Part shown: one piece after another, positions 2,006 to 18,556 of the stretch | How the letters are laid out: each line of letters begins with the position of its first letter | Position numbering within the stretch: the stretch's first letter is position 1 | Program-made: the position numbers and the translations under genes | The notes under the pieces: generated by a model | The model's input: only the letters and a program-made list of their open reading frames with translations | Told to the model about the DNA's origin: nothing | Databases searched by the model: none | IMG/VR virus record: IMGVR_UViG_3300037233_000064 | Span: 1-20,983 of that record | Length of the DNA stretch: 20,983 bases | Source: a virus | Reading direction: 5' to 3' (one strand)

Positions 2006-3019
2006 TCATCGTTGCAAGAATCTGTCACCTTCGCGCGACACCCTGCCGCGCCAGTAATTTAGCAAATCGAGCATGGTCTGCTCGAATGGAATTTCCGGTT
2101 TCCAGCCCGTGTGGTTTTTGAATTTCGTCGTGTCCGGGATTTGCAAATCGGCGTCAATCGGGCGCAGGCGCGTAGCATCAATTTCCCGCGCTATCGTCGC
2201 GCCTTTTGGAGACAAACTGAGCAAGTGATCCAGCACTCCGCCTATCGTCACCGTATGCTCGCCACCGATGTTGTAATAAGCGCCGGGGATTGGATTGACG
2301 GTCAGCAGCAAATGGTACGCGCGCACAGCGTCCCTAACATCGGCAATCGTTCTGAGAGAATGAAGGTTCCCAACTCTTACGACTGGCGGCAATAGACCAG
2401 CTTCGATCATTGCAATCTGTTTTGCAAACGATGATTCGGCGAACACATCGCCCCGGCGCGGGCCAGTGTGCGTAAACATTCGCGTCGTTTGCACGTTCAT
2501 TCCGTAAGCTTCGGCATAGAATCGCCCGACTAAATCGGTTCCGACTTTGGAAATTGCGTAAGGCGATGCTGGATGAAACGCACATTCCTCGCCAATCGGC
2601 CCTGTACCCTTTGGAACCCTGCCGAATACCTCAGATGAGGCGCAAACATGAACTAGGGCGCCCGGCGCGTGCTGTCTGATCGCATCCAGCAGCCGCGTGG
2701 TGCCGAGAATGTTTGTGTCAAGCGTATCAAGCGGCGCATCAAAACTGGTGAGCGGGAAACTTTGCGCGGCCAAATGAAAAACAAAATCCGGTTTTGACTT
2801 TTTGACAACTTCTTGGATTGAAATTGTGTCGCGTAAATCTCCATAAAGCAGATGAACGCGATCCCCTCTATTGATCCTCGGTACAAGCGTTTCAAAATTA
2901 TCCAGCGGCGAGCGCCACCGACACATCCCGTAAATATCCCAATCGGTATGCTCGATTAGGTACTCGGCAAGATGCGATCCGACAAAGCCGGAGCATCCGC
3001 TGATTAGCGCGCGTGTCAC
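2006..3019 (-). CDS. NAD(P)-dependent SDR, GDP-mannose 4,6-dehydratase-like
   Basis: Extended short-chain dehydrogenase of 337 residues, cytoplasmic, acting on a nucleotide sugar. Visible features are the Rossmann motif GCSGFVG at residues 8-14, catalytic Ser128-Ser129-Glu130 in 'CASSEVFG' (GMD uses Thr/Ser plus Glu), Tyr154 and Lys158 of 'YAISK', and a 'PRRG' motif of the kind seen in GDP-mannose dehydratases and GDP-6-deoxy-4-keto reductases. The most likely reaction is GDP-mannose to GDP-4-keto-6-deoxymannose; a 4-keto reductase is the main alternative. The GTG at 3019 is preferred because it overlaps the upstream ColD-like stop as GTGA, has GGGA six bases before it and gives a natural SDR N-terminus. 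The longer ATG at 3061 would add 14 residues and a 46-base overlap. It would supply the substrate for the ColD-like enzyme upstream. Confidence 0.85.
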   Translation of the reverse strand: MTRALISGCSGFVGSHLAEYLIEHTDWDIYGMCRWRSPLDNFETLVPRINRGDRVHLLYGDLRDTISIQEVVKKSKPDFVFHLAAQSFPLTSFDAPLDTLDTNILGTTRLLDAIRQHAPGALVHVCASSEVFGRVPKGTGPIGEECAFHPASPYAISKVGTDLVGRFYAEAYGMNVQTTRMFTHTGPRRGDVFAESSFAKQIAMIEAGLLPPVVRVGNLHSLRTIADVRDAVRAYHLLLTVNPIPGAYYNIGGEHTVTIGGVLDHLLSLSPKGATIAREIDATRLRPIDADLQIPDTTKFKNHTGWKPEIPFEQTMLDLLNYWRGRVSREGDRFLQR

Positions 3020-4167
3020 AGAACGTCCCGCATTATCTCGATTGCTCTTTCGTACCACCACATAGAGCCGTTATGCGGAGGGCACCCAATAAACATCGCT
3101 GTCTGGTGTATTCTGTCTGCTACGGGAGTTTTTTGAGACGCCCAAGGTTCCCCATAATGATGTTGGGTAAACGATCCGCCGCAAGGCAACCGACAATCAA
3201 TCCCCCTGGCACGGAAAGCATCGACAAGCCTTCCCCGCTTTTCGGCGTTCTCACATGAAAAAGCTATCCCGAACGGACTTTGGATTGTCCCATTTTTCTT
3301 TTGAAACCGGACGGAAACTCCAACGTGTTCGCACCTCTGAATAAAATAATCTCTGTTTTTATTTCTGGCTTCGATAAATCTAGACAACCTAGTTAGCTGA
3401 ACGCGAGCGACAGCGGCGTGCATCTCAAGCGGACGCAAATTATACCCAAAATATCTAAAATTGTATTCATCCTCGAATTTATCAATCTTGCCGAGCGAGC
3501 GCGTCATGCCGTGGTCTCGCAACATTCGGCACAATTTGGCGCACTCATCATCGTCGGTTAGGATCATGCCACCTTCAATGGCGGATAATTGGTGAGAATA
3601 GAAAAAAGAAAATGTATTCATTAGCCCGAACGTCCCGCAAAGTTTTCCATCAACCGACGCGCCGATAGACTCGCAGTTATCTTCCAAAAACATTGCGCCG
3701 TTCGCTTTTGCTAGTTGCCCCCAAAATTCATGGTGCATGGGGTTCCCAAGGATTGAGCAGCCAACCACCAGCTGAGCGCCTTCCCACCCTTTGGGAAGAG
3801 AGGTCGCCCATGGGGCGGCGGCGTTCCATGTTTCGTCGCAATCCGCGACAAGCAAATCCAAGCCATGTTGAACCAGGGGCGCGTAGGTTGTCGCCCATGC
3901 CATTGCCGGAACGATTGCCTTGTCGCCACGCTTTAGAGGGTTACGTTTAACGTGAAACAATGCGGCAACTGCCAGTAAATTAGCCGAACTCCCGCTATTG
4001 ACCATGATGGCGTGCTTCATCCCATGGGATGCTGCAAATTCCCCCTCAAACCCTTCTACCTCGGCCCCCATCGTATAATTGCCGGATGCCACGACGCGAT
4101 CTATTGCCGCTTTTTCTTGGAAAGACCAATCAGAAAACGCCGTGGGGAATGGATATTTAATCGGCAT
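3016..4167 (-). CDS. ColD-like PLP-dependent sugar 3-dehydratase (DegT fold)
   Basis: A 383-residue DegT/DnrJ/EryC1/StrS-fold enzyme. The residue that is Lys in sugar aminotransferases (FSF-xxx-K-xxxx-GEGG) is His192 here, in 'FSFFYSHQLSAIEGG'. In GDP-4-keto-6-deoxymannose 3-dehydratase (ColD) the same His replacement removes the internal aldimine and makes the enzyme a PMP-dependent C3 dehydratase. Further ColD-like stretches are 'VNSGSSANLL', 'PAMAWATTY', 'LEDNCESIGA', 'CGTFGLM' and 'GYNLRPLEM'. The predicted product, with the downstream SDR, is a GDP-4-keto-3,6-dideoxyhexose. The start at 4167 has GAGGA about ten bases upstream and overlaps the E1-beta-like stop by 11 bases. A longer ORF to 4269 lies entirely inside the upstream gene and adds a non-homologous leader. 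A simple aminotransferase annotation would probably be wrong. Confidence 0.88.
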   Translation of the reverse strand: MPIKYPFPTAFSDWSFQEKAAIDRVVASGNYTMGAEVEGFEGEFAASHGMKHAIMVNSGSSANLLAVAALFHVKRNPLKRGDKAIVPAMAWATTYAPLVQHGLDLLVADCDETWNAAAPWATSLPKGWEGAQLVVGCSILGNPMHHEFWGQLAKANGAMFLEDNCESIGASVDGKLCGTFGLMNTFSFFYSHQLSAIEGGMILTDDDECAKLCRMLRDHGMTRSLGKIDKFEDEYNFRYFGYNLRPLEMHAAVARVQLTRLSRFIEARNKNRDYFIQRCEHVGVSVRFQKKNGTIQSPFGIAFSCENAEKRGRLVDAFRARGIDCRLPCGGSFTQHHYGEPWASQKTPVADRIHQTAMFIGCPPHNGSMWWYERAIEIMRDVL

Positions 4168-4681
4168 AGAGTTTTGTTTCCTCAACAAGGATCGTCGAGT
4201 GATCTTCTCTCGCCGCGCGGAGATACGCTGGAACAATTTCGTCAACGTAGCGCAGTTCTCGGACCTCAACCGTTTTCAGCATCGCGCGAAAGGCCGGGCC
4301 AAAGTCCCCTAGATGCTGCGGGCCTGGGTCTAGCGGTTCTGGCGTTGCGATTGCGGTTCTAATAATGACGCGCGGGCGATAGTCGGAGTAGAGCGGAATT
4401 TTATCGAGGTGGTTTACGATTTGATTTGCCGCGAGAATTAGAAAGTTCCAACGCGGATAAATTGAGATTGGCAGCCCGCCAGACAGCGAAATGCCAATCG
4501 ACATTCCCATCTGCATTTCCTCGGCGACGGGCAGTTCAATCAGTTTTCCTCGCGGCACGCCTGAAAGAGTGTTTGTCATGCTGGTGCCGGGCTTCGCTAC
4601 GGCTTGGCCGAGAAAAACAGAATTTTCCATCTCGCCTAGCAGCGTCATGGCGCGAGTTATTTCGTCGGAGTAGGCGCTCAA
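4157..4681 (-). CDS. E1-beta-like thiamine-diphosphate subunit, Pyr domain only
   Basis: A 174-residue homologue of the N-terminal (Transket_pyr) domain of alpha-keto-acid dehydrogenase E1 beta. 'ELPVAEE' corresponds to the conserved P-I-A-E motif whose Glu activates the cofactor, and 'NFLILAANQIVN' matches the canonical NFALQAIDQIVN. 'GPQH' and the final 'ILVEETKLY' match the end of the Pyr domain in full-length proteins. Normal E1 beta is about 325-350 residues, so the whole C-terminal transketolase domain is absent. The stop is followed at once by coupled genes, and no frameshifted remnant follows. The best start is TTG at 4681, which overlaps the alpha stop as TTGA; an ATG at 4648 is an alternative. 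The ORF extending to 4783 is only open frame inside the alpha gene. It pairs with the alpha-like gene just upstream, and no E2 or E3 gene is seen. Confidence 0.85.
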   Translation of the reverse strand: MSAYSDEITRAMTLLGEMENSVFLGQAVAKPGTSMTNTLSGVPRGKLIELPVAEEMQMGMSIGISLSGGLPISIYPRWNFLILAANQIVNHLDKIPLYSDYRPRVIIRTAIATPEPLDPGPQHLGDFGPAFRAMLKTVEVRELRYVDEIVPAYLRAAREDHSTILVEETKLYAD

Positions 4682-5262
4682 AACTGAATGCGCTTCCCGG
4701 CGCCAGAATGCGGAAACCCGAGATGATAAACAAACCGGCGCTCCAAATCCTTCGGCTTTTGCCGGATGCCCCACGTTTCCCATGTTTCCGAACAGACGGA
4801 CATTCCATTATCCTCAACGACAAATCGGATTGGCAGAGCGTGGCCAGCGGCATACTGAATGCACTCGTGATAAATTCCCGTTGTCGCCGTCATGTCTCCA
4901 CTGAAAACAAAAACCTTTTCATTTCCTCCCGCGCGCTGAATTGCGAGCGCAATTCCTACGGCGATTGGAACGATCCCGCCGACGATGGCGCTAGAAATAA
5001 ATTTATGAGATGGGAAGCAGAGGCCCATGGATCGCCCGGCCATAATTTCGGCTTTAACTTCCTCTGGCGGGACGCCGTGCAAAAGCGCTTTCGCGTGTGC
5101 CCTCCATGAACAACAACACCAATCCCCCGGCTTTACATCCTTGAAAATAGCTATGAGCCCGGATTCGTTACCGCCGTCCAAATGGATTGGGGCACGGATA
5201 TGACCCGCGTTGAACTCCGAAGCTATATCAGCCTCGAACTTGATTAAATCTTCCGGCGTCAT
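4678..5262 (-). CDS. E1-alpha-like thiamine-diphosphate subunit, minimal
   Basis: A 194-residue homologue of the E1 alpha subunit (usually about 320-370 residues). The cofactor-binding signature runs from Gly122-Asp123 through 'YAAGHALPIRFVVEDN' to Asn152, matching the GDG-x(26)-NN pattern. Upstream, 'SWRAHAKALLHGVPPEE' (residues 52-68) and 'SSAIVGGIVPIAVGIALA' match conserved E1 alpha segments. The N-terminal helices and most of the C-terminal region of oxidative E1 alpha are missing. With the beta-like subunit it should form an alpha2-beta2 carboligase or decarboxylase in the cytoplasm. With no E2/E3, a non-oxidative two-carbon transfer is more likely than acyl-CoA formation. The start ATG overlaps the glycosyltransferase stop as ATGA, and the stop overlaps the beta-like start as TTGA. 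A 'CCC' run at residues 49-51 is a curious local feature. Confidence 0.87.
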   Translation of the reverse strand: MTPEDLIKFEADIASEFNAGHIRAPIHLDGGNESGLIAIFKDVKPGDWCCCSWRAHAKALLHGVPPEEVKAEIMAGRSMGLCFPSHKFISSAIVGGIVPIAVGIALAIQRAGGNEKVFVFSGDMTATTGIYHECIQYAAGHALPIRFVVEDNGMSVCSETWETWGIRQKPKDLERRFVYHLGFPHSGAGKRIQF

Positions 5263-6287
5263 GCGATGGCTCTGACTTTGGACCGAAACTTTATCGCAGC
5301 GAATACCTGTTCCCAGAATTTCATCGGCGAGTGTTCCCTGCTAACTCGCTCGTAAAGCGCCATTGCAATTTCTTCGCAGCGTTTCGGCTTGGTAATAAGA
5401 AACCGGCACATCTCAACGCAATCACCAGCGTTGGCATATTCCTCAAACTCTAACCGCTCGGTGAACCATTCTCTCAAGAGAGGATTGTTCCATTCGAGTA
5501 AACATGCTTGAGCAAGTGCGGTTTCGATCACGCGGCCCTTAACGTGCTTTCTCTCGCCAGAACCAGTGAGCGGGACATTGACGATGATTTGGCAGTTAGA
5601 AAGATATGTGGCGTAGTGCTGATACGATGCGTCGTCGCGCATTTTCAGAATGAACGGCATGTTTTCCTGTTGCAGCCGTTCAACGACACCCTTGCGTGCG
5701 TAGCTCCCGACATTCCCGCCAAACCCGATGGGGAAGGGGCGCTCGTCAAACGCCAAGGGTTGTTTTGGATAATATTGTGGACTGATCGGCGTCAAAAGAG
5801 ATAGCGCGTTACCAAGTCGCGTTGCCGCGTGCTTCCAATCTTTTCCTCCCGGCCAATCATGCGCGCCGTCGATGGTGACGGTTAGATCGAACGCACCCCA
5901 TGATTCCATTTCCGCAAGCGGCTTCCACCACGGAGGGTCCGCCCCATCAAAGATCATGTGGACCATGGGGGCCATGGCGTGAATCTGCGCTAGGGCTTCC
6001 GGTGACGGTGAGAAAGTCGCCCCCCAAGCGCTAATGTAGACAATCAAATCTGGAACAACATGCTTAACATGAGAAATTAGTTCAGCATCGCACCCAACAT
6101 TTTTATTTGTCAGGTCAGGTGGAGATGCCGCCGCGATGCGCTGGTCACGTTTGGCTTGTATGTCGATTTGTTGCGTCCACTTTTGATCGTAATGGAAAAC
6201 ACTGACGGTATGGTTCCCCATATACCGCAAGCTCTCCGAAATATTTTCGGTGTCGCCAGTCGAGGTGGTTGCGATAAGGATTTTCAC
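5259..6287 (-). CDS. Glycosyltransferase, CgeB / GT-B family-like
   Basis: A 342-residue cytosolic GT-B-type protein. It begins with a Rossmann-like strand 'MKILIATTSTGDTENISESL' (the first residue is read from GTG), and has the middle segment 'HMIFDGADPPWW'. The C-terminal nucleotide-sugar site region resembles CgeB/YkvP-like transferases: 'PIGFGGNVGS', 'NCQIIVNVPLTGSG', 'KGRVIETALAQACLL' and 'ERLEFEEYANAGD'. It would transfer a sugar, plausibly the one made by the downstream cassette, to an unknown acceptor. The GTG start overlaps the radical SAM stop as GTGA, and the stop overlaps the E1-alpha-like start as ATGA. There is no signal peptide or membrane segment. The family assignment rests on motif likeness, and the acceptor is unknown. 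Confidence 0.75.
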   Translation of the reverse strand: MKILIATTSTGDTENISESLRYMGNHTVSVFHYDQKWTQQIDIQAKRDQRIAAASPPDLTNKNVGCDAELISHVKHVVPDLIVYISAWGATFSPSPEALAQIHAMAPMVHMIFDGADPPWWKPLAEMESWGAFDLTVTIDGAHDWPGGKDWKHAATRLGNALSLLTPISPQYYPKQPLAFDERPFPIGFGGNVGSYARKGVVERLQQENMPFILKMRDDASYQHYATYLSNCQIIVNVPLTGSGERKHVKGRVIETALAQACLLEWNNPLLREWFTERLEFEEYANAGDCVEMCRFLITKPKRCEEIAMALYERVSREHSPMKFWEQVFAAIKFRSKVRAIA

Positions 6288-7735
6288 GCCGCGTTCTCCA
6301 ACAATTTCCGCTTGATCTTGTGCCGCGTCATGTCTTGAACATGCGCCAATGTCTCGGCTCCGAATTTCTCTCGCACCATTTCAAGGTAGCGCGGGTTCTT
6401 AAAATAAATATCAAACGCATCATCGCGGAAGCGCAGAACTTCTGCGGCGGTTAGGGTTTCGGTATCCATGCACCGGGTTTCGTAGGCGTGCTGAGAATAC
6501 CCAATCCACGAATCTGGGACTGCCCACCCCTTTGCAATTGCCTCATCATAAAGCGGGGAGCCAGGATACGCCTGCGCGACGTAAAAATTAGCCCACGCCG
6601 TATTCAGTTCAAGCGCAAGGTCCAGTGTCTCTTGCATTGTTGCGTATGTGTCCTGTCTTAACCCGAAGATAAAATTAGAGATTACATTTATCCCGGCTCG
6701 CTCAATTTCGCGCACCACTCCAACAATGTCATTGCTGCGTAGCGCCTTGTTCGCGCTGTCTCGGACAAGTTTCGAGCCACTTTCAATCCCTAGCGCGAAC
6801 CAATTAAACCCGGCGCGGCGCAAAAGGGAGAGATTTTCTGGGTTTACGGTATCGGTTCTGGCATAGCACCAACTTGATATTTTATCGCCGAGACCGGCGG
6901 CTATAATGCCGTGGCATATCGCCTCGTAATGATTTTTTTTCAAAATGAAAAGTTCATCGGTAAATTTGAACGTCTCAATTCCGTACTCTCGATTTAGTGT
7001 AACCATTTCTTTAACCACGGCATCGGGCGAGCGCGTCCGGTAGCGGTTGGTATGTTGGAAAACATTTATCATGCAAAAATGACAGGCGTGGGGGCATCCG
7101 AGAGACGTATAAATAGCCGCGTAGGGCTTCCGTTTCGCCTGATCGTCGAGTCTCTGCCAGTTATGGCTTCGATATCGAGTCATCTGGAATAAATCCCACG
7201 CGTCACCGTGTAGGTCTTTGTCTAAATCCAAAAGTGGTGCGGCACTGTTTTTGCCCCCAGACCAGACAAGCCCTGGTATTTCCGCAAGAGGTTCATCGCG
7301 GAGCAGCCCGGCTATCGTCAGCGGCCCCTCTCCGTCTGCTACATAGTCTATTGCCTCCTCGCGTAAGGTTCTCTCGGGGAGTGCCGAGGGATGATTCCCT
7401 GTCATAATGATTTTTTGATCGGCGTACTGTTTTTTTATCTCCCGCGCTATTTGCCCGGCACAAACCATTTTCTGAGAACTAGCTGACGGCTGCTGCCCCT
7501 CTACAACAATCACGACCAAACGCGGTCTCTCCACATAAACTATATCGGCAACTGTCTTTGGAGATATTCTTTCGGCGTCCGCGTCTATTACCAGGACGGA
7601 AAATCCGTGTTGGCGCAGATAGGCTGCATTTAGCCTTGTCCAAAGCGGCTGCTCAATCGCTGCGTAGTCGTTAGCAAGCCCCTGATAAATCTCCTGGGAC
7701 GCGCCTGGGTGAATTAGTATTGCGTCAAGCGTCAT
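6284..7735 (-). CDS. B12-binding-domain radical SAM protein
   Basis: A 483-residue radical S-adenosylmethionine enzyme of the class with an N-terminal Rossmann B12-binding-like domain (residues 1-150, ending 'YVADGEGPLTI') and a central TIM-barrel. The [4Fe-4S] ligands are Cys214, Cys218 and Cys221 in 'GCPHACHFC'. The barrel continues with 'KFTDELFIL', 'GFNWFALGIESGS' and 'INVISNFIFGLRQDT', typical of the MiaB/BchE-like Elp3 fold. Such enzymes carry out methylations, cyclisations or C-C/C-H rearrangements on unactivated carbons; the substrate is unknown. As the first gene of the sugar cassette, it may modify the sugar or the acceptor. The ATG overlaps the stop of the upstream zinc-ribbon gene as ATGA. 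There is no visible DxHxxG motif, as in other BchE-type members, so cobalamin binding is inferred. Confidence 0.88.
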   Translation of the reverse strand: MTLDAILIHPGASQEIYQGLANDYAAIEQPLWTRLNAAYLRQHGFSVLVIDADAERISPKTVADIVYVERPRLVVIVVEGQQPSASSQKMVCAGQIAREIKKQYADQKIIMTGNHPSALPERTLREEAIDYVADGEGPLTIAGLLRDEPLAEIPGLVWSGGKNSAAPLLDLDKDLHGDAWDLFQMTRYRSHNWQRLDDQAKRKPYAAIYTSLGCPHACHFCMINVFQHTNRYRTRSPDAVVKEMVTLNREYGIETFKFTDELFILKKNHYEAICHGIIAAGLGDKISSWCYARTDTVNPENLSLLRRAGFNWFALGIESGSKLVRDSANKALRSNDIVGVVREIERAGINVISNFIFGLRQDTYATMQETLDLALELNTAWANFYVAQAYPGSPLYDEAIAKGWAVPDSWIGYSQHAYETRCMDTETLTAAEVLRFRDDAFDIYFKNPRYLEMVREKFGAETLAHVQDMTRHKIKRKLLENAA

Positions 7736-8711: not shown

Positions 8712-8971
8712 GCGAGTCCTCTTTTTTCAAGATAGGTTTGTTCTCTGGTTGGAGACGCTTCCGTCGCAAGCGGTAGCCCCGCGTCGATCTGAAACCTCTT
8801 ACGATCCTCGGCCAAGGTTTCTGCGTAGAGCATTGCGTCGTTCAACTGCTCAAACTTTCGGTGGTGGTCTCCGATTGAGGCGACAAAATTATAGGGCAGT
8901 GCCTCAAACTCAATCGTTACATCCTCGAAGCCTTCGAGCTTTAGTTTTTCTTCTTCCTTGATCCAGGCCAT
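8708..8971 (-). CDS. Hypothetical protein (87 aa), shares terminase-like C-terminus
   Basis: Unrecognised 87-residue acidic/amphipathic protein starting 'MAWIKEEEKLKLEGFEDV'. Its C-terminus, 'TYLEKRGLA', closely resembles the end of the upstream terminase, 'EYLRERGLA'. In both genes the Arg-Gly codons contain GAGG, placed about eight bases before the next ATG, so the likeness may come from an embedded ribosome site. It starts one base inside the terminase stop (TAATG) and ends in an ATGA overlap. It is probably translationally coupled to terminase, and a packaging accessory role is possible but not shown. Confidence 0.65.
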   Translation of the reverse strand: MAWIKEEEKLKLEGFEDVTIEFEALPYNFVASIGDHHRKFEQLNDAMLYAETLAEDRKRFQIDAGLPLATEASPTREQTYLEKRGLA

Positions 8972-10857
8972 TACGCCAGCCCTCGCTCTCTCAGATATTC
9001 CGTTTCGGGGCTAAGAATTTCGTCCTCGGCGTGTTCCTCGGCGTTACGGAAAAACTCTGCAACCCTTCGATCTACGATTGATCCCATCGTTACCGGCTCG
9101 CCGTTTTCCTCGGCTGTCACAACCAAGAATGTCTGTCCATTTTGGATCATCGTCTTTCGCGGCCAATCAACCCATGCCTTGTTGGCGAGCGCCGCCGCGA
9201 AAACTCGATCATCCTTGCCGCGCCCAGCAGCTTTAATGTCATCTCCGTCCTGAGTAACGGTCATCATTTCTTCCAAGAGCGGCGCGGAAGAAATATCTAA
9301 AAGTTGTGTTACATAATTATCGCGGAGTTGATTCATGATTACGGACTTAGTACGGAAAGTCATTTCGGTGTTATACATATATCCAGCACCGATTGAATCG
9401 GGACGATGGAACAGATACCAACTTGCGGTCGATAAAAAATCATCCCACTCACGCGAGGCCATCGCCTTTTCGTACATCTCCGCGTGCATCTGATCGCGCT
9501 TATGGTCAAATTCTTCCATGACCGCGCGGCCTGGGCCGGTCAATTCAAGGTTCACCACACAATCCCGATACGCTCCCGCTAGATGCGCCAAAACCCAAGC
9601 GCACTGTCTCGTGTCAATGTGATGGGCCGCATATTCAGCGCACAAAACTAACCTATCGGCGTAGCAGCGCCAGACTGAAATTGCATGACGGTCGGACCAC
9701 TCGCTGCGCCCAAATGCGGGGTCACATCCGATAACATATTTTGCGCCCTTCACCGGCTCGTGCCAGATGCGTAGTTCAACATCATCAATACGCTCGGGAT
9801 CGTCAATCAATTCTAGTTTGACCGTGAAAAAATCGTTCCCCATAGAGTAGCGATAGCCTCGGTAAATTACCGGCTCCCCCCCATCGTTCCCGTAAATTCG
9901 TGCCAAATCCTGCTGGACGGTTCGCGCTTGGAAAAACGAATGGCCCGACTGAACGAAAGCATCGTCGGCGAGCCATGGCTGATTTTGCTGTAGCATCCCG
10001 GCGTCGGCACCTTCCTTGGAATCTTTCCACCGCCGCCACGCTAATTGCTCTTGAGAGATTCTGATTTTGTGTTGCACGCGCACCGCCTCGATTTTCTCTT
10101 GCTCAGGCGCGTCTGGCGGAGCCTCCCCATAAATCTCAAACCGTTGGTCTTTTTTAGAAAATGCGTTGAGAGGATTTGCCCACCACCCGATAAAGAACCG
10201 ATGCTTAGTCGCCGTGTCTTTCCCAGCATCAAGCCACCGCTCATACCAGTGGTTAATTCCCTTGGCCGTACCTTCTTTTATGAAAAGGCGGTCTGGATGG
10301 GACTGCGCCAGAGCTTCCTCGAATGAATCAAGGGCGGCGGGGTTTCCATAGTTGGCAACTTCGGTTAAATGAGCGAACGAATATCCAATGCCTTCGCCCC
10401 AGACTTTTGTTTTGCCGGTTCCCGCCACAAGAAAATCCAGGCGCGAGCCGTTGGAAAATTCCATGCGGTCTCGGTTATCGCCGATAACCCTGAACGATTT
10501 ACCAAGAAACCCGGTTGGAAACGATTTGATATACCGCCGCATCACGGTTCGGAAGGCGCTACTATTTTTCGGCGTGTCGGTTACGAGCGCCCCGATTGTC
10601 CCCGAATGAACGGCGAGCCAGAAAACATCAATCGCCAGACTGACCGTGGAAATTCCAAGTTGCCGGGCTTTTAAGCAAGTAAAATCGCGGACGCCTCGAT
10701 CTAGACCGCCGCACATTTCCTCCAAAAAAATTTTCTGGCTGCCCCAAAGATCGAGCGGCGCACCCTGCCCGTCGATATTTGCAACCTCTTTCGAGTCAAT
10801 GCGGAGCTTGGAACAAAAATCCAAGAACAGGGGGAGCCAGCGGTTTTCGTCGGTCAT
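8971..10857 (-). CDS. terL: Terminase large subunit (ATPase-nuclease)
   Basis: A 628-residue DNA-packaging motor. The N-terminal ATPase has an adapted Walker A 'KARQLGIST' at residues 63-71 and a Walker B with catalytic Glu, 'FAHLTE', at 161-166. The C-terminal RNase H-like nuclease shows its first Asp in 'VIGCDPAFG' (Asp379), a second acidic site in 'VNLELTGPG' and the third acidic region in 'GRGKDDRVFAAALA'. The length is normal for phage TerL. The ATG overlaps the small ribbon-helix-helix-like gene as ATGA. The C-terminal tail 'EYLRERGLA' carries the ribosome site of the next gene. Terminase is followed in the same operon by four small genes and then the sugar cassette, and is convergent with the portal 9 kb away. 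Confidence 0.95.
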   Translation of the reverse strand: MTDENRWLPLFLDFCSKLRIDSKEVANIDGQGAPLDLWGSQKIFLEEMCGGLDRGVRDFTCLKARQLGISTVSLAIDVFWLAVHSGTIGALVTDTPKNSSAFRTVMRRYIKSFPTGFLGKSFRVIGDNRDRMEFSNGSRLDFLVAGTGKTKVWGEGIGYSFAHLTEVANYGNPAALDSFEEALAQSHPDRLFIKEGTAKGINHWYERWLDAGKDTATKHRFFIGWWANPLNAFSKKDQRFEIYGEAPPDAPEQEKIEAVRVQHKIRISQEQLAWRRWKDSKEGADAGMLQQNQPWLADDAFVQSGHSFFQARTVQQDLARIYGNDGGEPVIYRGYRYSMGNDFFTVKLELIDDPERIDDVELRIWHEPVKGAKYVIGCDPAFGRSEWSDRHAISVWRCYADRLVLCAEYAAHHIDTRQCAWVLAHLAGAYRDCVVNLELTGPGRAVMEEFDHKRDQMHAEMYEKAMASREWDDFLSTASWYLFHRPDSIGAGYMYNTEMTFRTKSVIMNQLRDNYVTQLLDISSAPLLEEMMTVTQDGDDIKAAGRGKDDRVFAAALANKAWVDWPRKTMIQNGQTFLVVTAEENGEPVTMGSIVDRRVAEFFRNAEEHAEDEILSPETEYLRERGLA

Positions 10858-11024
10858 GGTGCGGCCAGATTCGGATTAACAAACCGCATCTTTTCCAGCA
10901 GCGCCTTACGCGCCCAGGTTGATAGCGCGATGCCCTCGTGCTTGGCTAACTGCCTAAGTGCCCGCTTGTGCTGCGGCGTGAGGGTCACGGTGATAAACGC
11001 CGTTTCGCTTGGTTTTCGTTTCAC
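10854..11024 (-). CDS. Ribbon-helix-helix-like small protein upstream of terminase
   Basis: A 56-residue protein from a GTG at 11024, with an in-frame stop six codons further upstream. The N-terminal strand 'TAFITVTLTPQHKRALRQLA' followed by 'HEGIALSTWARKALLEKM' has the strand-helix-turn-helix pattern of ribbon-helix-helix DNA-binding proteins. It overlaps the terminase start as ATGA, the position where a small terminase subunit is usually found. It is much shorter than classic small terminases, so it could be a DNA-recognition protein for packaging or an autoregulator of this operon. No clear Shine-Dalgarno lies at the usual distance (GGGGA is immediately adjacent), so the exact start is less certain than the frame. 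Confidence 0.7.
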   Translation of the reverse strand: MKRKPSETAFITVTLTPQHKRALRQLAKHEGIALSTWARKALLEKMRFVNPNLAAP

Positions 11025-11042
11025 TCCCCAGAAATACAGTCA

Positions 11043-11061
11043 CTTGCGAAAAAAGCGCAAG
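11043..11061. promoter_or_regulatory. Inverted repeat between RHH gene and RNA candidate
   Basis: CTTGCG and CGCAAG (6 bp) are separated by seven bases, AAAAAAG. The repeat lies 20-40 bases upstream of the ribbon-helix-helix start and just before the first hairpin of the RNA candidate, so it sits between two divergent transcription units. It could be an operator for the neighbouring small DNA-binding protein. No convincing -10/-35 pair was found for either direction in 11025-11078. Confidence 0.3.
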
Positions 11062-11078
11062 ATATTTGAATTTCACTC

Positions 11079-11751
11079 GGAGAATTTTCTAGAAAACTGG
11101 TTGTAAAAAATTCTCCTTGCGCCCCGTTGCTGAAGGTGGCACAAACGCAAACCGCCCCAGGAATGAGTTTCCGAGGGCGGTTCGCAGCCATCAAAGGCTG
11201 TGCAGTGTCTGGCTCTGGGAAGGGCAAAAGACACCGCTGATTGTGTGTTTATAGACAGAAACCACAACTCGGCGCAACAAAAAATAAATCCCTCATAACG
11301 GCTCAGTCTAGGCTCAATCCAGCGGTGATGTCGCGTTGGTACGGCCTACCGCCTCGGGGCGAGCCGCAAACTGTCAAATGACGGCGTGGAGTCGTTGATC
11401 CCTCTCCATGCTACAGAACCCGCTATTTTAACCGATTGCCGCAAGCCAGGGGTACAGGGTAACCGCCACTGGGCCGAACTCCGGCGCAATGAGGATCGAA
11501 CCGTCTGCCGTAACGCTCAGGTGCAGAAAGGAGTTATCTCTATACGAGGGATAACTCCGTCCATCGTTCGCTAGGTGCAGACCCATAAGAAACCGAGCCA
11601 AAGGCGAGGCAATTAGACTTAACTGGCAACGGGCGCAAGAGCCTGAAAGGCTAGACTGAGTAAGCGATTAAGCTAACCACCACGGCGAAAATCGAAAAAG
11701 AATTGATGTAATCCGTCTAAATCGTCAGCGGAAAATTCTCAATTCTTTTTC
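11079..11751 (+). ncRNA. Candidate large structured RNA, unidentified
   Basis: There is no convincing ORF on either strand, but a continuous nested fold. In order: a 10-bp hairpin (11079-11088/11107-11116); a 7-bp helix 11117-11123/11271-11277 that encloses four successive hairpins (11150-11182, 11183-11202, 11205-11234, 11241-11267); an A-rich linker; then a 10-bp perfect long-range helix 11302-11311/11651-11660 closing a domain with hairpins 11319-11339, 11384-11411 and 11530-11558 (12 bp); finally a 13-bp AU helix 11694-11706/11739-11751 ending in U-rich sequence. Five stems contain pairs that are G-U on the plus strand but would be A-C mismatches on the minus strand (for example 11539/11549, 11386/11409, 11184/11201, 11214/11223, 11322/11336), so the plus strand is the likely transcript. 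One hairpin has a GGGA (GNRA) loop. Size and phage context recall GOLLD and ROOL RNAs, but I cannot identify it with either. Confidence 0.55.
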
Positions 11752-11841
11752 TTATTCCAATTAACGTGAAATCTTACCTTAATTCACGCATTGATCAATT
11801 CAACAGCAGTTATTTGTAGAACATGCCTAAATAACACAAAT
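11752..11841. other. AT-rich spacer between RNA candidate and HTH gene
   Basis: A 90-base AT-rich gap where the plus-strand RNA candidate and the leftward HTH gene meet. It contains the short inverted repeat CGTGAA/TTCACG and the palindrome TTGATCAA. No ORF and no GC-rich terminator are seen. Confidence 0.5.
11771..11798 (-). promoter_or_regulatory. Possible sigma70-type promoter reading leftward
   Basis: On the minus strand TTGATC (11798-11793) and TAAGAT (11776-11771) are 16 bases apart, acceptable for -35 and -10 boxes. It would drive transcription across the RNA candidate on its antisense strand and into the terminase operon. It also lies in an AT-rich stretch containing CGTGAA/TTCACG (11765-11770/11783-11788). 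Such matches occur by chance in AT-rich DNA, so this is weak. Confidence 0.25.
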
Positions 11842-12240
11842 CTAGGTGCTAATCTTACAAATCACCAATTCATACCCCAGAGATTGAAGCGCCGCTTCGT
11901 ATGTATCTAATCTTGGGGTTGTTCGACCGTGCCGCCATCCTGAGAATGTTCTTTGGTTTTTGCCGCTGATCCTAGAAACCGCCGTGTCGGTAAGCTGCGC
12001 TGTTAGTGATAATTGGAAAAACTCTTGCACTAACCGACTGGCACTATCTGGCGAGAAAGGCGGGGTTCTCGGGGCTGTGCTTTTATATTTCGCAGCCCGC
12101 ACGGCGGCGCACTCGATACAATCGCCGCAGATGTATCTCTCCCCACTATGACCGTTTATACACGGCGTTCCCATATACCGCCGCAAGCCTTTACCTTGAG
12201 CCTCAATCCTGTTGGCGTGGGATGTTGCGGAATAGCTCAT
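11842..12240 (-). CDS. Zinc-knuckle plus helix-turn-helix protein
   Basis: A 132-residue two-part DNA-binding protein. Residues 20-52 hold a Cys/His cluster, 'MGTPCINGHSGERYICGDC' followed by 'IECAAVRAAKY', like the short zinc-binding modules found with phage HNH-type proteins ('TPCxxGHxGERY...CxxC'). The C-terminal half, 'TDTAVSRISGKNQRTFSGWR' then 'TTPRLDTYEAALQSLGYEL', looks like a Cro/C1-type helix-turn-helix with its final helix. It is probably a regulator or DNA-targeting protein. The ATG overlaps the upstream 72-residue gene as ATGA. It is the last gene of the leftward replication/modification operon and converges on the structured RNA candidate. Confidence 0.75.
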   Translation of the reverse strand: MSYSATSHANRIEAQGKGLRRYMGTPCINGHSGERYICGDCIECAAVRAAKYKSTAPRTPPFSPDSASRLVQEFFQLSLTAQLTDTAVSRISGKNQRTFSGWRHGRTTPRLDTYEAALQSLGYELVICKIST

Positions 12241-16200: not shown

Positions 16201-16731
16201 ATGCAAGCGGCGATAATCCAAGGCTCGGTGCCGAATTTTTTTGGCTACGGCTACGGCGACGGCTACGGCTACGGCTACGGCGACGGCTACGGCTACAGCT
16301 CCGGCTCCGGCTACGGCTCCGGCGACGGCTACGGCGACGGCTACGGCGACGGCTCCGGCTCCGGCGACGGCGACGGCGACGGCGAGTATTGGGCTGGCAC
16401 CGTTTCGTTTTTTGCAAAAAAAATGCCAGATGCAGCGAAGGCTCGGCTCACTCAGTTGCAAAAGGCTGGCGCGAAGATCGCGTTTTGGCGCTCGGGTACG
16501 GATGGCCAGCCGTCGAACAGCGGCGGGAAGATCGAAGCCGCCGCACCGGGCGTTATCCACACTTCGCCGGGGCCACTTAAGATTTGTGAGAAAGGAACCT
16601 TACACGCCACACTCATTCCGCCGAAATGGAAAGGTGAGCGGTGGTGGATTGTCGCCCTGCATGGTGAAGTGGTGGGCGACGACGAAAAGTACGGATGCTT
16701 GAAGCGCGAAATTATCGGCGAATGCGTTTAG
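16201..16731 (+). CDS. Gly-Tyr/Asp/Ser repeat protein with C-terminal domain
   Basis: A 176-residue protein with AGGAG ten bases upstream. Residues 15-61 are a Gly-X alternation where X is Tyr, Asp or Ser, encoded by hexamers GGC-TAC, GGC-GAC or GGC-TCC; a single Ser for Gly breaks the pattern. The C-terminal half has 'LAFWRSG'-like text ('IAFWRSGTDGQPSN'), 'GPLKICEKGTLHATL', 'ERWWIVALHGEV' and 'YGCLKREIIGE'. The latter resembles the DUF7666 family ('LCEKGLHA...VELxG...KLxxxKRxI'), known in phages without a proven function. The repeat is probably disordered, and slippage could change its length. Confidence 0.75.
   Translation: MQAAIIQGSVPNFFGYGYGDGYGYGYGDGYGYSSGSGYGSGDGYGDGYGDGSGSGDGDGDGEYWAGTVSFFAKKMPDAAKARLTQLQKAGAKIAFWRSGTDGQPSNSGGKIEAAAPGVIHTSPGPLKICEKGTLHATLIPPKWKGERWWIVALHGEVVGDDEKYGCLKREIIGECV
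16243..16383 (+). repeat. Hexanucleotide tandem repeat GGC-(TAC/GAC/TCC)
   Basis: A 141-base run of 23 six-base units plus a final GGC. Units differ almost only at the fourth and fifth bases (TA, GA or TC). One unit starts AGC instead of GGC. It codes the Gly-X region of the protein above. The other frames and the antisense strand stay open only because of this repeat. Confidence 0.95.
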
Positions 16732-17771: not shown

Positions 17772-18556
17772 GTACCGACGAATCAATCCCGCCGCGCGAC
17801 CGTGGCGACTTGGACAAATGGCTGCACGAGCGTCTTGGCAAGCTGACGGCCTCGCGGATGAAGGACGTTATCGCCGTCACCACGAAAGGACCGAGCGCAT
17901 CGCGCGATAAATACAAACTCGAATTGATCGCCGAGCGCCTAACCGGGATGCAGACCGACCACTACGTTAACGCCGCGATGATCCACGGCCAGATAACCGA
18001 GAAAGACGCGGTGCGCGCTTACGAAGAATCTAAGGGCATTAAAACGGAAACGGTTTGGTTTGTCCCGCATCCGAAGATTGAAAATGCTGGCGCGTCACCG
18101 GATCGCCGCGTCGGCGACAATGGACTTTTGGAGGTGAAGTGTCCAAACACGGCAACCCATATTGTGACGCTTTTGGAAAAGAAAGTTTCCAAGGATCACC
18201 AGACGCAAATTCAATGGCAACTCGCTTGCGATCCGAGCCGCGCATGGGCGGATTACGCCTCGTATGATCCAAGGCTTCCGCCCGCACTACGCCTTGTTGT
18301 TATTAGAGTGCCGCGCGATGAAGCGAAAATCGCGGAACTAGAAAAACACGCTAAAGATTTTCTCGCGGAGATTGACGCGGCTATTAAATCGCTCGGAACT
18401 TTCGAGCCGATCCAGGCCGCTGTTGTTGCGCCCGCAGATTCTTTCGGCGGCCCAGCGGCAACCGTGCAGCCATTCCCCGCAAACATGGAACGCCAAATCC
18501 GCCCCGAGGATGAGGCGAATTGGCAGCCGTCGCAGCTTGTGAGGCCGCGCGCGTAA
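17768..18556 (+). CDS. Lambda-exonuclease-type (YqaJ-like) recombinase
   Basis: A 262-residue viral recombination exonuclease. Matching features are 'KLTASRMKDVIA' near the N-terminus (the L-T/G-A-S-x pattern), 'AMIHGQITEKDAVRAYEE', the catalytic 'NGLLEVKCP' (E-x-K), and 'DHQTQIQWQLACDPSRAW' (the Q-x-Q-W-Q-L signature of the family). It processes double-stranded ends for strand annealing; I see no single-strand annealing protein nearby in this window. The GTG start overlaps the CxxC protein stop as GTGA. The stop shares a base with the next ATG (TAATG). The last 40 residues are low-complexity (Pro/Ala) and may be disordered. Confidence 0.88.
   Translation: MSTDESIPPRDRGDLDKWLHERLGKLTASRMKDVIAVTTKGPSASRDKYKLELIAERLTGMQTDHYVNAAMIHGQITEKDAVRAYEESKGIKTETVWFVPHPKIENAGASPDRRVGDNGLLEVKCPNTATHIVTLLEKKVSKDHQTQIQWQLACDPSRAWADYASYDPRLPPALRLVVIRVPRDEAKIAELEKHAKDFLAEIDAAIKSLGTFEPIQAAVVAPADSFGGPAATVQPFPANMERQIRPEDEANWQPSQLVRPRA

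What the first reader, a model, noticed from the sequence alone, without database searches (positions are those of the whole stretch)
11079..11751. Large plus-strand structured RNA of unknown family in a phage
The 817-base gap without a gene folds into ordered, nested helices. A 10-bp hairpin (11079-11116) abuts a 7-bp helix (11117-11123/11271-11277) that exactly encloses four hairpins. After a short A-rich linker, a perfect 10-bp helix joins 11302-11311 to 11651-11660, and a 12-bp hairpin sits at 11530-11558. Five helices have pairs that are G-U if the plus strand is RNA, but A-C mismatches on the minus strand. That bias gives the transcribed strand without any data. A GGGA (GNRA) loop occurs at 11217-11220. 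A 13-bp AU hairpin with a U-rich end closes it. GOLLD and ROOL are the known large phage RNAs of similar size; I could not match their sequence. A 10-bp chance inverted repeat in 600 bases is not rare alone, but the nesting is hard to explain by chance.
Basis: partly seen in the sequence, partly recalled or inferred. Interest (0 to 1): 0.88.

Follow-up and report, generated by a model that had tools for sequence, protein, structure and literature searches.

The report
Unmatched large structured phage RNA candidate
A gene-free 670-base stretch of an uncultured phage genome, probably infecting alphaproteobacteria, folds far better than chance and matches no known RNA family, so it is probably a new large RNA, but it is known from a single sequence and no mutation-based test of its structure could be made.

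Summary
The gap (11025-11841) is real and holds no credible gene. Its core, 11079-11751, folds much better than shuffles on both strands (z -6.7 on +, -5.8 on -). That crossing makes a pseudoknot or an alternative fold. The G-U strand bias is absent: 7 such pairs favour +, 9 favour -. The 7-bp "enclosing" helix is only one of three possible partners of the P1 5' strand. The + strand is still moderately favoured, because domain 11503-11623 folds well only there (z -3.5 versus -0.7). It is not GOLLD, ROOL or any other Rfam family by score. Eight viral scans, two genome scans, BLAST of phages, plasmids and E. coli genomes, and two covariance models found only one identical contig of the same phage population. 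Covariation is therefore untested. Best reading: a free-standing large structured noncoding RNA of no described family, functioning like GOLLD/ROOL-type phage RNAs; confidence about 0.6.

The parts
11042..11061 (.). hairpin / inverted repeat CTTGCG...CGCAAG between the RHH-type gene and the RNA; possible operator or leader hairpin
   Evidence: sequence; formed in the MFE fold
11079..11116 (+). 5' hairpin, 10-bp perfect lower stem, directly abutting P1
   Evidence: z -3.0
11116..11132 (+). P1 5' strand CTTGCGCCCCGTTGCTG (one bulged C)
11150..11182 (+). D1 hairpin 1 (8+4 bp, CA/GA internal loop)
   Evidence: pair probability 0.97-0.99
11183..11202 (+). D1 hairpin 2 (7 bp, AUCAAA loop), abuts hairpin 1
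   Evidence: p 0.96
11205..11234 (+). D1 hairpin 3 (6+5 bp, AAA bulge, GGGA tetraloop)
   Evidence: p 0.98-0.99
11235..11274 (+). D1 hairpin 4 (15 bp with two bulges), abuts hairpin 3
   Evidence: p 0.98; whole D1 z -5.3
11271..11277 (+).
11302..11311 (+). 5' strand of the 10-bp long-range helix; crosses P1 (pseudoknot or alternative fold)
   Evidence: -14.7 kcal/mol
11383..11412 (+). 9-bp hairpin GGCGTGGAG/CTCCATGCT
   Evidence: p 0.96
11483..11489 (+). GGCGCAA, second alternative partner of TTGCGCC
11503..11582 (+). long irregular hairpin carrying the 12-pair terminal stem 11530-11558
   Evidence: domain 11503-11623 z -3.5 on +, -0.7 on -
11592..11607 (+). small hairpin CC-GA-GCC-AAA-GGC-GA-GG (possible tandem G-A pairs)
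   Evidence: fold; sequence
11624..11639 (+). P1 3' strand TGGCAACGGGCGCAAG, contains the third GGCGCAA (11632-11638)
11640..11652 (+). 5-bp hairpin AGCCT-GAA-AGGCT between P1 and the pseudoknot strand
   Evidence: p 0.74
11651..11660 (+). 3' strand of the 10-bp long-range helix
11694..11751 (.). 13-bp perfect AT-rich hairpin with U-rich 3' arm; possible 3' end or terminator (works on either strand)
   Evidence: z -5.7; not called a terminator by the scan

Best explanation
The region encodes a free-standing, large (about 580-670 nt) structured noncoding RNA, probably read from the + strand, against the direction of its two neighbouring genes. Shown: strong folding, no coding, no known family, one genotype. 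Inferred: P1 closes the molecule, a four-hairpin 5' domain and an irregular 3' hairpin domain pack inside it, and the 10-bp 11302-11311/11651-11660 helix locks (or alternates with) P1 as a pseudoknot. Inferred function: a trans-acting RNA made during phage growth that works as a stable folded particle, alone, as an oligomer or with a protein, in the manner of GOLLD/ROOL-type phage RNAs, without being a member of either family.
For: No credible ORF or protein family in the gap. MFE z -6.7 on +. D1 z -5.3 with four abutting hairpins of pair probability 0.96-0.99. Domain 11503-11623 folds better than chance only on +. Three perfect long-range helices in 0 of 160 shuffles. Positive AT skew (+0.17), otherwise seen at that level only in windows of the plus-coded genes beyond 16900, while flanking genes are on -. 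No Rfam match.
Against: Only one sequence is known, so there is no covariation. Relatives of the neighbouring genes lack it, so it is an accessory insert of unproven use. No sigma-70-like promoter or canonical terminator was found. Folding of the middle (11400-11502) is not above chance. P1 alone is matched by 8% of shuffles. An antisense coding stretch in the same window reaches z -5.6.
Confidence: 0.6

Rival explanations
1. Minus-strand leader. The region is transcribed with the flanking minus-strand genes and acts in cis as a long structured leader of the RHH-type gene and the terminase large-subunit gene.
For: Both neighbours are on -, and the fold on - is also strong (z -5.8; D1 z -5.4). 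Weak -35/-10-like boxes TTGATC-N16-TAAGAT lie near 11806-11779 on -, by eye (8 of 12, below the scan cut-off).
Against: Domain 11503-11623 is unremarkable on - (z -0.7). AT skew points to +. 800 nt is very long for a leader, and terminase relatives lack it.
Confidence: 0.15
2. A DNA element: a cluster of inverted repeats that serves as a replication, packaging or protein-binding site rather than as RNA.
For: 106 pairs are Watson-Crick on both strands, and G-U pairs show no strand bias. GGCGCAA/TTGCGCC recurs 4 times. The region lies upstream of the terminase gene beside an RHH-type DNA-binding protein gene.
Against: No iterons or tandem repeats here, no skew inflection at 11 kb, irregular bulged hairpins with short loops typical of RNA, and a strand-specific signal at 11503-11623.
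Confidence: 0.12
3. A divergent ribozyme or intron (group I, group II, RNase P-like or other) that no Rfam model recognises.
For: Pseudoknotted, compact, multi-helix architecture. A 78-nt RNase P class A fragment match at E 0.04 contains ACAGAACCCG.
Against: Score 14.4 against a cut-off of 100, resting on model ends with 294 of 367 positions skipped; no exons or interrupted gene; no intron family at E<=5.
Confidence: 0.06
4. No conserved function: chance folding or a decayed element.
For: Singleton; the middle third has no excess folding; another chance-like z of -5.6 in the window.
Against: Whole-region z -6.7 with none of 120 shuffles near it, several independent strong domains, and an open non-coding gap in a tightly packed genome.
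Confidence: 0.07

Closest known systems
ROOL RNA (RF03087)
   Same: Size class (659-nt example), phage-encoded, complex fold with pseudoknots, no protein partner known (PMC12286853)
   Different: No match even at E<=10; no tRNA in the window (ROOL is often near tRNA islands)
GOLLD RNA (RF02032)
   Same: Large phage RNA of multi-domain fold, function unknown (PMC12286853)
   Different: No match at E<=10 to the Rfam model of 416 positions; GOLLD has a universally conserved 3' region, which is not recognised here; no tRNAs nearby
OLE and raiA RNAs
   Same: Large, highly structured bacterial RNAs
   Different: No Rfam match; not phage-encoded as a rule (own knowledge)
phi29 packaging RNA
   Same: Phage structured RNA; here the RNA lies near the terminase gene
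   Different: phi29 pRNA is far smaller (about 174 nt, own knowledge); no Rfam match; proximity to the terminase gene is the only link

Membership tests
GOLLD (RF02032) | Score over the covariance model's cut-off (150 bits) | tested here: not met
   no match at E<=10; the controls gave only sub-threshold noise
ROOL (RF03087) | Score over the covariance model's cut-off (99.1 bits) | tested here: not met
   no match at E<=10 (no control genome rang, so sensitivity is unproven here)
GOLLD/ROOL | Neighbouring tRNA genes (frequent, not universal) | tested here: not met
   no tRNA in the window
GOLLD/ROOL | Self-assembly into a multimeric cage | not testable with these tools
   needs native gel or cryo-EM
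Large structured noncoding RNA (general kind) | Folds better than shuffled sequence | tested here: met
Large structured noncoding RNA (general kind) | Covariation of base pairs among homologues | tested here: inconclusive
   no homologue found; the only other copy (L038) is identical
Large structured noncoding RNA (general kind) | Discrete transcript | not testable with these tools
   no RNA-seq
Group I/II intron, RNase P RNA | Rfam model match | tested here: not met
   RNase P fragment 14.4 bits against a cut-off of 100
tRNA/tmRNA | ARAGORN detection | tested here: not met

The most novel reading that the evidence does not exclude
A previously undescribed class of large phage RNA, unrelated to GOLLD and ROOL, with a P1/long-range pseudoknot core. 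Three competing GGCGCAA partners for one 5' strand would let it switch between folds.
Probability: 0.4. Interest if true: 0.8.

Novelty: new variant of a known kind. Interest (0 to 1): 0.52.

Why it matters
Large ornate phage RNAs are few (GOLLD, ROOL) and their functions are unknown. A further unrelated one, in a phage of probable alphaproteobacterial hosts, would show that phages have evolved such RNAs repeatedly, and would give a compact system for structure probing and cryo-EM. If only the fold is real and not the function, the interest falls.

Tried and rejected
Homologue search: DNA BLAST of phages, plasmids and E. coli genomes and of sub-domains against phages: none or chance. Terminase relatives: 8 loci and the best 80 of 148; helicase relatives: 28 viral loci and the best 80 of 261 genome loci; the RNA was sought in them by nhmmer: absent. 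A terminase scan of genome contigs found no relative. Single-sequence covariance models R1 (D1) and R2 (3' domain) on loci and on 385-397 genomes a time around a Mesorhizobium-type genome: one chance hit inside an acyl-CoA synthetase gene.

Arguments tested and dropped: G-U strand bias; A-rich loops as a sign of RNA, equal to shuffle expectation; P1 as significant on its own; a duplexfold test of long-range pairing was useless, because it extended over everything; RNase P relation, end fragments only; coding, weak PHROG hit E 0.016 for a 62-aa ORF, not credible.

Full report
What is there. The window is a 20,983-base virus record. Between 11025 and 11841 there is no credible gene: the ORFs there are 57-68 aa, overlap on opposite strands and match no family. 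The flanking genes are on the minus strand: a 132-aa protein with a cysteine-rich N-terminus (11842-12240; weak PHROG families of unknown function) and a small ribbon-helix-helix-like protein (10854-11024; DUF6290/NikA-like), followed by the terminase large subunit (8971-10857; Terminase_6C just under its cut-off; 23-36% identity to annotated phage terminases).

Fold. The stretch 11079-11751 has MFE z -6.7 (+) and -5.8 (-) against 120 dinucleotide shuffles each, and three perfect long-range inverted repeats of 9-10 bp, a combination seen in none of 160 shuffles. In a scan of 300-base pieces over the whole window it is the strongest cluster. By domain: 5' hairpin 11079-11116 z -3.0; D1 11133-11282 z -5.3; 11283-11420 z -1.7; 11400-11502 z +1.1; 11503-11623 z -3.5; 3' hairpin 11690-11760 z -5.7. 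Single stretches of z near -5 do occur by chance in this window: the antisense strand of the YqaJ-type exonuclease gene at 18001-18300 scores -5.6. The case therefore rests on several independent domains in one gene-free gap.

Architecture. P1 (11116-11132/11624-11639) is a 16-pair helix with one bulged C, at -26.4 kcal/mol. It begins directly at the end of the 5' hairpin. Inside it, four hairpins (11150-11182, 11183-11202, 11205-11234, 11235-11274) lie almost without spacers. The perfect 10-bp helix 11302-11311/11651-11660 crosses P1, so both together form a pseudoknot. Such a one-to-three relation is found in 35 of 2000 shuffles, so a conformational switch is possible but weakly supported. 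P1 by itself is not exceptional (78 of 1000 shuffles).

Strand. A-rich loops are no evidence either, since shuffles give the same. What favours + is the domain 11503-11623 (z -3.5 on +, -0.7 on -) and the AT skew of +0.17, a level otherwise reached only in the plus-coded part of the window. I put + at about 75%.

Known families. Nothing reaches an Rfam threshold in the window. Relaxed searches of the region give only chance-level matches. GOLLD and ROOL models find nothing at E<=10. There are no tRNAs. By the family definitions it is therefore not filed as GOLLD or ROOL. It resembles them in size, phage origin and pseudoknotted multi-domain layout (PMC12286853).

Relatives. The only other copy is in contig IMGVR_UViG_3300037147_000043 (L038), identical through the RNA, so it gives no covariation. 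Relatives of the terminase (45-71% identity) and of the helicase (up to 82%) show no similar sequence, and the closest ones checked keep tightly packed genes in its place. Pattern scans, sub-domain BLAST and single-sequence covariance models also found nothing. These tools detect only fairly close relatives by sequence, and the models, built on one sequence, are of limited reach. Absence of relatives is therefore weak evidence. The closest cellular relatives of the helicase are in alphaproteobacterial genomes, Mesorhizobium first, which suggests the host group.

Verdict. Mechanism is inferred: a stable folded RNA particle acting in trans during phage growth.

Noticed in passing
L090:1990-2540 (- strand): A second gene-poor, strongly folding stretch (z -4.3 on -, -3.6 on +) in another phage with a 47%-identical terminase; no Rfam or phage BLAST match and no similarity to the window RNA beyond chance.
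   Followed up: partly
window 18001-18300 (- strand): The antisense strand of the YqaJ-type exonuclease gene folds unusually well (z -5.6 on -, -0.2 on +). Probably chance, but strand-specific.
   Followed up: partly
window 2006-7735 (- strand): A cassette of sugar and cofactor enzymes in a phage: GDP-mannose dehydratase/epimerase, DegT aminotransferase, split TPP-dependent dehydrogenase subunits, glycosyltransferase-like, and B12-binding radical SAM protein.
   Followed up: partly
L047:499-1027: A gap rich in inverted and direct copies of GGTGACGCA (z -9.0 on +, -7.1 on -), more like clustered protein-binding sites than an RNA.
   Followed up: no
window 12570 against L038: L038 is almost identical to the window up to about 12570 and then diverges inside the methyltransferase gene, as if by recombination.
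   Followed up: no
window 16243-16383: Tandem 6-base repeat (23.5 copies of GGCTAC-like units) encoding a low-complexity Gly-Tyr-Asp stretch.
   Followed up: no
window 11042-11061: Inverted repeat CTTGCG...CGCAAG just upstream of the RHH-type gene, sharing its half-site with P1; a candidate operator.
   Followed up: no
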